64,000 bases of DNA from positions 1-64,000 of the forward strand of contig JADGRQ010000018.1 of NCBI GenBank assembly GCA_017880775.1. Direction: 5' to 3'. The translations under genes were made by a program, and so were the position numbers. Every line of letters begins with the position of its first letter. Position 1 is the stretch's first letter. Of the stretch, positions 24,572 through 26,605 are shown piece by piece. Below the pieces are notes generated by a model. It did no database searches and had not been told where the DNA came from. It worked only from the letters and a program-made list of their open reading frames with translations. This stretch comes from Burkholderiales bacterium. Lineage in GTDB: Bacteria; Pseudomonadota; Gammaproteobacteria; Burkholderiales; SG8-39.

Positions 24572-24943
24572 CTAGCGTAGCAGGGCGCGTTCGATCCGGC
24601 GCAGAGTTTCGCCTCCGGTCAGGCTCGCGATCGCCCACCCGAGTGCGACCCCGGTCGCGTTGGCGAGCATGTCGAGATACTCGAACGTACGGTAGTCGGT
24701 CATGCCTTGCGCGTACTCCAGCGCGACGCCCATCGCGGCGAACGCGAGTGCGTGCGCGATGCGCGACGAGCGCGTGGCGTAGATCTGGCAGAACCAGAAC
24801 ATCAGCGTGCCGTAGGCGAGGAAGTGGCCGAGTTTGTCGCCCTGCTCGATATCGAGCTTCGGTGGACTCGGTGTGAGCGAGAGGAAGATGATTATCGCGA
24901 CCAGCGCGTAGCCGATCGTGAGCCAGAGTTTGCGAAAGCGCAT
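24572..24943 (-). CDS. VanZ-family protein
   Basis: MRFRKLWLTIGYALVAIIIFLSLTPSPPKLDIEQGDKLGHFLAYGTLMFWF...ALEYAQG...DMLANATGVALG. Confidence 0.85.
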   Translation of the reverse strand: MRFRKLWLTIGYALVAIIIFLSLTPSPPKLDIEQGDKLGHFLAYGTLMFWFCQIYATRSSRIAHALAFAAMGVALEYAQGMTDYRTFEYLDMLANATGVALGWAIASLTGGETLRRIERALLR

Positions 24944-25080
24944 GGCGATGGCGTTCAGAACTGCTTCGACGTGATGCTTCGGGCTGGCATTCTGGCAGCA
25001 ATTGGGGCGAACCAGCCTCGGACGGCATTCTGGCTCATCCCCTGGGGCACCCCCTAGGGCAGAAGGCCCCGAAGGGGGCA

Positions 25081-25105
25081 CGGCCAACAAACAATCAGTT
25101 GGCCG
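25081..25105. repeat. inverted repeat CGGCCAAC-N9-GTTGGCCG
   Basis: 8-bp perfect arms read directly. Confidence 0.8.
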
Positions 25106-25119
25106 GCTAGCGGGCATCC

Positions 25120-25257
25120 ATGAACATCCAGTTCTCCGAAACGCCCCTCCTCAACGGCTCATACGGCTACCCGAACCGCCACTTGGAGCTCGACTTGAGA
25201 TGCCAAATTGGCATTTCAAGATCGCCGCGCGCAGTACTTGGCGCGGGTCGCCTATGA
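25120..25257 (+). pseudogene. candidate N-terminal remnant of a type III-like/BPTD_3080-type restriction endonuclease
   Basis: MNIQFSETPLLNGSYGYPNRHLELD resembles the remembered family N-terminus (..F..PILNSPYEYPxRHWELD..), then decays and stops. Confidence 0.45.
25194..25220. repeat. near-perfect palindrome CTTGAGATGCCAA-A-TTGGCATTTCAAG
   Basis: 13-bp arms with one mismatch, read directly. Confidence 0.9.
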
Positions 25258-25375
25258 GCGCCGCAACCATGAGGTCGACCTGGCTCGGACGGGATGAAGT
25301 GCCGTTCCCATGCTGGGCTCGGTCCCCGAGCCGAGGTGCCTTGACCGCTGCCGCTCTACGGGCAGGAGAATTGCG

Positions 25376-25477
25376 ATGAGGTTCTGGCTGGGCGTAACAG
25401 ACAACAGGTGGTTTGATTACCTTACCCGAAGGTTTCTCTCCACCAGTTTTCAAGCTCATCGCCATTCTCCAGAAGTA
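25376..25477 (+). pseudogene. candidate truncated HNH-endonuclease-type N-terminus
   Basis: RBS-like gggcaggag then MRFWLGVTDNRWFDYL, resembling the remembered MRFWxGVTDxxWFxFL start; FKL and HSPE motifs appear just after in different frames. Confidence 0.45.
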
Positions 25478-26605
25478 TCAAAACAACTGCATCTGTCCCC
25501 CAACCACCGGCGACCTGAACTGCGTGCAATCCAGATCAATCCTCTCCCGGCTCCTCCGGTCCAGCCCGTGACGCTTGCGCGCAATCGAAAACCGCGCCCT
25601 CAGCAGCTCCGCGAAATTCCCTGTCCCACGCATGCGCGAGCCGAAATTCGGGTCGTTGTCGCGCCCGCCGTGCATGTCGCGCACGATGCTCATCACGTGG
25701 TCCGCGCGCTGCGGGTAGTGCGTCGCTAGCCATTCGCGGAACAGGCCCTTCAATTCGTTCGGCAGGCGCAGCAGCGTGTAATCCGCGCTGGTCGCGCCCG
25801 CGGCGTGCGCGGCTTCGATCACCGCTTCGATGGTGGTGTCGGTGAGCGCCGGGATGATCGGCGCCACCAGCACGCCGGTCGGGATGCCGGCGGACGACAG
25901 CGCCCGGATCGTATCCAGCCGCCGCTGCGGGCTGGCCGCGCGCGGCTCCAGGCGCCGCGCGACCACGCGATCGAGCGTGGCGATCGATACATAGACTTCG
26001 GCGAGGTGGTTCCTTGCCATCGGCCCGAGCAGGTCGAGGTCGCGCTCGATCAGCGCGCCCTTGGTGACGATGGTCACCGGGTGATTGCACTCGGCGAGGA
26101 TTTCCAGCACCTGGCGCGTGATCCTGAATTTTCGCTCGATCGGCTGGTAGCAGTCGGTGTTGGCGCCGAGCATGATTGGCGAAACCTTGTAGCCGGGCTT
26201 GGCGAGCTCCGCTTTCAGCAGTTCCGCCGCGTTGGTCTTGGCGAACAGCTTCGTTTCGAAATCCAGACCGGGCGAGAGCTCCAGATACGAATGGCTCGGG
26301 CGGGCGTAGCAGTAGACGCAGCCATGCTCGCATCCGCGGTATGGATTGATCGAGTGCTCGAACGGAATGTCGGGCGATTCGTTCCTCGAAATGATCGAGC
26401 GCGCCCTCTCTTCAGTGACCGTGGTGGCAACCTCGGGCGCCGGTTCGTCCTCGCGCGTCCAGCCGTCGTCGATTGCCTCGCGCGCTTCACCCTCGAACCG
26501 TCCTTGCGGATTCGAAACCGCGCCGCGCGCCTTGCGCGGGCGGGGTGTTTCGCTGGATCGACCGATCTGCACCTGCGTGGCCCTACAATGACGGTTCAGG
26601 GGCAT
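25478..26605 (-). CDS. PA0069-family radical SAM protein
   Basis: NPYRGCEHGCVYCYARPSHSYL CxxxCxxC cluster; SplB-related architecture; true start may be downstream of 26605. Confidence 0.9.
   Translation of the reverse strand: MPLNRHCRATQVQIGRSSETPRPRKARGAVSNPQGRFEGEAREAIDDGWTREDEPAPEVATTVTEERARSIISRNESPDIPFEHSINPYRGCEHGCVYCYARPSHSYLELSPGLDFETKLFAKTNAAELLKAELAKPGYKVSPIMLGANTDCYQPIERKFRITRQVLEILAECNHPVTIVTKGALIERDLDLLGPMARNHLAEVYVSIATLDRVVARRLEPRAASPQRRLDTIRALSSAGIPTGVLVAPIIPALTDTTIEAVIEAAHAAGATSADYTLLRLPNELKGLFREWLATHYPQRADHVMSIVRDMHGGRDNDPNFGSRMRGTGNFAELLRARFSIARKRHGLDRRSRERIDLDCTQFRSPVVGGQMQLF

What the first reader, a model, noticed from the sequence alone, without database searches (positions are those of the whole stretch)
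25005..25477. ORF-poor gap with apparent remnants of two different restriction/HNH nuclease genes
This gap of about 0.5 kb between VanZ and the radical SAM gene has no convincing intact gene. Two plus-strand fragments read like starts of defence-type nucleases. MNIQFSETPLLNGSYGYPNRHLELD (25120) resembles BPTD_3080/type III-like restriction endonuclease N-termini. MRFWLGVTDNRWFDYL (25376, with an RBS-like sequence) resembles HNH-endonuclease N-termini, followed by frameshifted FKL and HSPE scraps. This suggests an eroded defence island or a repeated landing site. The family matches are from memory.
Basis: partly seen in the sequence, partly recalled or inferred. Interest (0 to 1): 0.6.

Follow-up and report, generated by a model that had tools for sequence, protein, structure and literature searches.

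The report
Scraps of a decayed restriction-modification cassette
The 0.5-kb gap is the wreck of a multi-gene restriction (anti-phage) cassette that landed between two overlapping genes; one of its scraps is a DNA palindrome that turns out to be strongly conserved inside a whole family of phage-type DNA-binding genes, which to my knowledge has not been described.

Summary
Window 24944-25477 is a 534-bp insert between a radical SAM gene and VanZ. In five same-family genomes these two genes abut or overlap. The only same-genus genome held (G001) carries a ~2.9-kb cassette at exactly this point: BPTD_3080 restriction endonuclease, ORF6N gene, type III-like methyltransferase, itself decaying. The gap holds scraps in the same order: BPTD_3080 N-terminus (25120-25194), a 34-bp piece of the ORF6N gene (25193-25226), methyltransferase N-terminus (25244-25298), then the start of a "VTDN"-type HNH endonuclease (25376-25429, shifted scraps to 25474). 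An unrelated MAG (L108) has intact BPTD_3080, the same truncated methyltransferase and an intact HNH gene in that order, so one composite cassette suffices; repeated landing is not needed. No intact BPTD_3080 remains in the genome.

The surprise is the ORF6N scrap, a 27-bp near-palindrome. In 35 distinct ORF6N genes, aligned by protein motif, the same codons form 11.4 of 13 palindromic pairs on average, against 4.9 expected with random synonymous codons, with strong compensatory changes (0 of 500 shuffles). Some Bro-N genes from the same cassettes also carry long palindromes. I found no description of this.

The parts
24944..25477 (.). 534-bp insert between radical SAM stop codon (minus strand, ends 25478) and VanZ start (minus strand, 24943)
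   Evidence: Homology to same-genus G001 stops at 24946 and resumes at 25478; in L005, L007, L008, L012 and L013 the two genes abut or overlap
25120..25194 (+). N-terminal 25 codons of a BPTD_3080 family (type III-like) restriction endonuclease, remnant
   Evidence: 63% aa identity over 27 residues to intact L067 and to G001, 56% to plasmid pT29A; score 83 vs shuffle max 54
25193..25226 (+). remnant of an ORF6N-domain accessory gene (reads DLRCQIGISRSP)
   Evidence: 91% nt identity over 34 bp to the ORF6N gene of the G001 cassette, colinear; single copy in own genome
25194..25220 (.). 27-bp near-perfect palindrome CTTGAGATGCCAAATTGGCATTTCAAG, the ORF6N intragenic palindrome
   Evidence: same palindrome position in nearly all ORF6N genes examined, with compensatory changes
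25244..25298 (+). remnant of the N-terminus of a type III-like DNA methyltransferase (RVAYERRNHEVD, then shifted WLGRDE = WRGKDE)
   Evidence: 75% aa identity over 12 residues to L067, 74% nt over 50 bp to G001, colinear; score 50, reached by 2 of 300 shuffles
25376..25429 (+). N-terminal 18 codons of an HNH_2 endonuclease of the 'VTDN' type, with RBS-like AGGAGA upstream
   Evidence: 63% aa identity over 19 residues to own-genome intact paralog G000:C87; score 75 vs shuffle max 49
25422..25474 (+). out-of-frame internal scraps of the same HNH gene (LPEGFSPPVFKL, 5-bp insertion, HSPE); about 18 residues missing before them
   Evidence: Read by eye against intact paralog L051:6538-7467; short, moderate weight
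25478..26605 (-). flank: radical SAM protein (PF04055)
   Evidence: orthologues in 57 of 101 relatives
24572..24943 (-). flank: VanZ-like protein (PF04892)

Best explanation
The gap is the residue of one composite restriction-modification cassette: BPTD_3080 endonuclease, ORF6N accessory gene, type III-like methyltransferase and HNH endonuclease, in that order. It inserted in the genus ancestor exactly between the radical SAM stop codon and the VanZ start codon, which in relatives abut or overlap (shown by empty sites). It then lost function by successive internal deletions and frameshifts (shown: only short, ordered, mostly N-terminal scraps remain). The deletions ended close to both sides of the ORF6N palindrome, which fits hairpin- or slippage-assisted deletion (inferred). 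The remnant encodes no working nuclease. Its likely present effect is only to uncouple VanZ and MATE from the radical SAM gene (inferred).
For: Colinear matches to G001 at the same site. G001's own cassette is decaying: internal BPTD_3080 deletion, frameshift, methyltransferase cut near residue 70. Colinear matches to the intact cassette L067. BPTD-MTase-HNH order in L108. Empty sites. Shuffle test. MTase found beside BPTD_3080 in 69 of 80 genome loci. No BPTD_3080 elsewhere in G000.
Against: NCBIfam and PADLOC give no hit to the isolated peptides, as expected for 20-36 aa. The MTase scrap alone is weak (2 of 300 shuffles). The G001 insert has no HNH, so the HNH could be a later arrival. 24944-25112 is unexplained.
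Confidence: 0.93

Rival explanations
1. Two separate insertions: first the BPTD_3080 cassette, later an HNH gene that landed in or beside it, so the junction is a repeatedly used landing site.
For: G001 has no HNH scrap at the site; most BPTD_3080 cassettes lack this HNH (2 of 80 loci, one of them only a distant match).
Against: L108 carries BPTD_3080, a methyltransferase cut at nearly the same place, and an intact HNH in one cassette; relatives with VanZ beside the radical SAM gene show empty sites.
Confidence: 0.25
2. The remnant is kept for a DNA-level role: the palindrome at 25194-25220 is still a binding or regulatory site, or the gap supplies the promoter for VanZ and MATE.
For: The only surviving piece of the ORF6N gene is the palindrome, intact apart from one mismatch; palindromes of this kind are under strong DNA-level constraint in living ORF6N genes.
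Against: No intact BPTD_3080 or ORF6N partner remains at the site; only one genome with this remnant; conservation within the species not testable here.
Confidence: 0.1
3. Chance resemblance or assembly artefact.
For: Short peptides; draft genome of 88 contigs.
Against: Scores far beyond 300 shuffles for two proteins, four independent scraps in the order of a real cassette, three of them at the same site in the sister genome.
Confidence: 0.02

Closest known systems
BPTD_3080 family restriction endonuclease (NCBIfam NF046055) with its type III-like methyltransferase (PADLOC MTase_III PDLC03632)
   Same: N-termini of both genes, gene order and orientation match intact cassettes (L067, L033)
   Different: only about 25 and 18 codons remain; no helicase, nuclease or methylase domain survives
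HNH_2 (PF13391) endonucleases with N-terminus M(K/R)(F/I)W(V/I/L)GVTDNxW
   Same: first 18 residues match in register; intact paralog at G000:C87:42537-43463
   Different: the HNH catalytic domain is gone; frameshift and deletion
ORF6N domain protein (PF10543) accessory genes of restriction loci
   Same: the palindromic codon stretch (L/V)(R/K)(S/C)Q(I/F)(V/A/G)(T/I)S is present
   Different: nothing else of the gene is left

Membership tests
BPTD_3080 restriction endonuclease (NF046055) | family N-terminus xFxxxPxLNxxYxYPxxHxELD | tested here: met
   56-63% identity from Met1; score above all 300 shuffles
BPTD_3080 restriction endonuclease (NF046055) | ResIII helicase and C-terminal endonuclease domains; bit score over 800 | tested here: not met
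   gene cut after 25 codons; no NF046055 match in G000: a remnant, not a functional member
Type III-like R-M system | methyltransferase gene beside the endonuclease | tested here: inconclusive
   a 12-residue in-frame scrap plus a shifted 6-residue scrap, colinear with G001 and L067
HNH_2 endonuclease, VTDN type | N-terminal motif M(K/R)xWxGVTDxxWFxYL | tested here: met
   63% over 19 residues to own paralog
HNH_2 endonuclease, VTDN type | HNH_2 catalytic domain (PF13391) | tested here: not met
   sequence ends at the radical SAM gene after about 33 recognisable residues; intact paralogs have it
ORF6N domain gene (PF10543) | palindromic LRSQxVTS codon block (a feature found here, not part of the Pfam definition) | tested here: met
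   34 bp at 91% to G001 ORF6N; aligned with 35 others in A2
ORF6N domain gene (PF10543) | complete ORF6N domain | tested here: not met
   only 34 bp remain

The most novel reading that the evidence does not exclude
ORF6N genes, and part of the Bro-N/DinD-like accessory genes of restriction cassettes, carry an intragenic DNA palindrome of about 23-35 bp kept by selection on the DNA itself. The 'conserved' protein motif LRSQ(I/F)(V/A)TS is then partly a by-product of that site. The palindrome may be the protein's own operator or a recombination site that lets these genes swap in and out of restriction cassettes. The window's only surviving ORF6N scrap is exactly this palindrome.
Probability: 0.6. 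Interest if true: 0.7.

Novelty: new member of a known kind. Interest (0 to 1): 0.42.

Why it matters
The gap itself is a clean case of a defence cassette inserting between overlapping genes and decaying, and it validates a memory-only family call. The wider point is the palindrome. If a DNA site is selected inside the coding sequence of a DNA-binding protein family, at the codons of its most conserved motif, the motif's conservation cannot be read as protein constraint alone. It also gives a concrete, testable binding or recombination site for ORF6N proteins, which have almost no literature (5 papers in the held library mention the term; at least one of these is a herpesvirus paper and probably a chance match).

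Tried and rejected
Direct HMM scans of the scraps against NCBIfam and PADLOC gave nothing; the peptides are too short. tblastn of the HNH read-through in plasmids and of the BPTD_3080 scrap in phages gave nothing. Rfam: no match near threshold, so no known ncRNA in the gap. I considered the palindrome as a dispersed repeat and rejected it. The window form occurs once in G000. The commoner form occurs 0-4 times per genome, mostly inside the ORF6N genes listed, with zero hits for the reversed control pattern. G037 also has two copies just upstream of its ORF6N gene, and a few hits (G000:C38, G001:C20, G106:C83) were not traced to a gene. HNH as a regular part of the BPTD_3080 cassette: not supported in general (2 of 80 loci), but L108 shows the arrangement exists.

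Full report
Observation. The peptides are present at the stated positions. The window lies in a 4.3-Mb, 88-contig genome (G000:C63), and the gap sequence occurs once in it. Scored without gaps against the cassette proteins, the gap gives 83 to BPTD_3080 and 75 to an HNH endonuclease. The best of 300 Markov shuffles gave 54 and 49. Both matches begin at Met1 of the intact proteins, on the plus strand only. So the scraps are real.

The site. MFS, radical SAM, VanZ and MATE are neighbours in relatives. In five same-family loci (L005, L007, L008, L012, L013) the radical SAM stop abuts or overlaps the VanZ start. The window has 534 bp there (24944-25477). The same-genus genome G001 has about 2.9 kb there, with homology stopping at the very same two points (window 24946 and 25478). 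Pfam confirms Radical_SAM, VanZ, MatE and MFS_1 for the flanking genes.

The cassette. In G001 the insert reads BPTD_3080, then ORF6N, then the start of a methyltransferase. The endonuclease has a large internal deletion and a frameshift, and the methyltransferase stops near residue 70. In the window the matches are colinear with it: 25113-25193 (70% nt), 25193-25226 (91% nt), 25240-25287 (74% nt), then radical SAM at 25478. The same three scraps are colinear with the intact cassette of G037 (L067). Of 80 BPTD_3080 loci fetched from public genomes, 69 have the methyltransferase downstream and 43 the UvrD-like third gene. The reference proteins score 1311 bits to NF046055 and 1730 bits to PADLOC MTase_III. 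G000 itself keeps no BPTD_3080.

The HNH scrap. 25376-25429 reads MRFWLGVTDNRWFDYLTR. An intact 309-aa paralog with an HNH_2 domain sits on another contig of the same genome (G000:C87) and reads MKIWIGVTDKDWFEYLTR. The later scraps FKL and HSPE correspond to its FKLHSPNN, split by 5 bp in the window. In L108 (JAAYDW010000052.1, a Deltaproteobacteria MAG) a full-length BPTD_3080 gene is followed by a methyltransferase cut after residue 72 and then by an intact HNH of this type, which has HNH_2. The window's order BPTD, MTase(N), HNH is therefore an arrangement seen elsewhere, and one composite cassette explains all scraps. A separate HNH arrival is possible and is kept as a rival.

Mechanism. 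Shown: insertion at a gene overlap, decay to ordered scraps, no intact BPTD_3080 in the genome. Inferred: deletion endpoints cluster at the palindrome (BPTD homology ends at 25194, exactly where the palindrome starts, and the ORF6N match ends at 25226, six bases after it), as expected if hairpins promote deletion. Inferred: the insert uncouples VanZ and MATE from the radical SAM gene.

The palindrome. The ORF6N scrap is CTTGAGATGCCAAATTGGCATTTCAAG. In the BPTD_3080 loci with a methyltransferase plus L067, long palindromes are about eight times denser between BPTD_3080 and MTase than elsewhere (17 in 61 kb against 44 in 1.25 Mb); six of the 17 come from L067 alone. All 30 ORF6N genes inspected in relatives have one at or next to the (L)(R/K)SQ(I/F)(V/A)TS codons, and 39 of 41 when a phylum-wide sample is added (about 20 of the phylum-wide loci were not reached by the motif search). 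I then anchored on the protein motif instead of on palindromicity. In 35 distinct windows, 11.4 of 13 pairs form, against 4.9 when codons are redrawn synonymously for the same peptides. Two-sided changes are frequent: 64 cells against 18.4 in shuffles; covariation 0.405 against 0.172, 0 of 500 shuffles; sliding the partner by one base drops pairing from 91% to about 40%. For example Val to Ala (GTG to GCG) goes with the silent Ser TCA to TCG. Bro-N genes from the same slot also carry palindromes at a different motif (DHF(A/V)DVxKM), with compensatory changes, while the two relatives found lacking that motif have none. The common ORF6N form occurs 0-4 times per genome, mostly in ORF6N genes, so it is not a dispersed repeat. 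Searches of the held literature found nothing on it; this is an absence in one open-access library, not proof of novelty.

Limits. The MTase scrap alone is marginal (2 of 300 shuffles), and its weight comes from colinearity. The ORF6N match to the L067 protein alone is at chance level (90 of 300 shuffles), so that scrap rests on the 34-bp DNA match to G001. 24944-25112 has no identified origin. Only one other genus member is held. The function of the palindrome is not known; operator and recombination site are both open.

Noticed in passing
L179-L208, L209-L229 (ORF6N genes); window 25194-25220: ORF6N genes carry a 23-35 bp palindrome at the LRSQ(I/F)(V/A)TS codons with compensatory codon changes: 11.4 of 13 pairs against 4.9 expected from synonymous codons.
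   Followed up: partly
L097:13255, L099:13523, L105:11395, L112:10606, L129:13262, L132:4258, L238-L251: Bro-N (PF02498) accessory genes between BPTD_3080 and methyltransferase also contain perfect or near-perfect palindromes of 25-32 bp (e.g. GACCATTTTGTTGACGTCAACAAAATGGTC = DHFVDVNKMV); the two relatives found without the motif lack it.
   Followed up: partly
L197, L181, L205, L207: Some ORF6N genes have a second LRSQxVTS-like block in tandem, in L197 with a second palindrome, suggesting in-frame spread of the unit.
   Followed up: no
L067:8498-9080: Between a BPTD_3080 gene and its ORF6N gene lie several stand-alone palindromes of the ORF6N type (8704, 8840, 9040), possibly remnants of earlier accessory genes.
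   Followed up: no
L108, L132 and G001:C8 (L034): The methyltransferase of the BPTD_3080 cassette is repeatedly cut soon after its N-terminus (residues ~70-106); in L132 the cut copy is followed by a Fic-like gene and a second methyltransferase start.
   Followed up: partly
G024:C315, G043:C87, G045:C36, G055:C131: The orthologous radical SAM gene is split by about 1 kb of open frame near residues 98-103 (beside the Cys motif) in several relatives, looking like an intein.
   Followed up: no
window 24572-25117: The longest ORF for VanZ over-extends into the insert; the start in relatives corresponds to 24943.
   Followed up: yes
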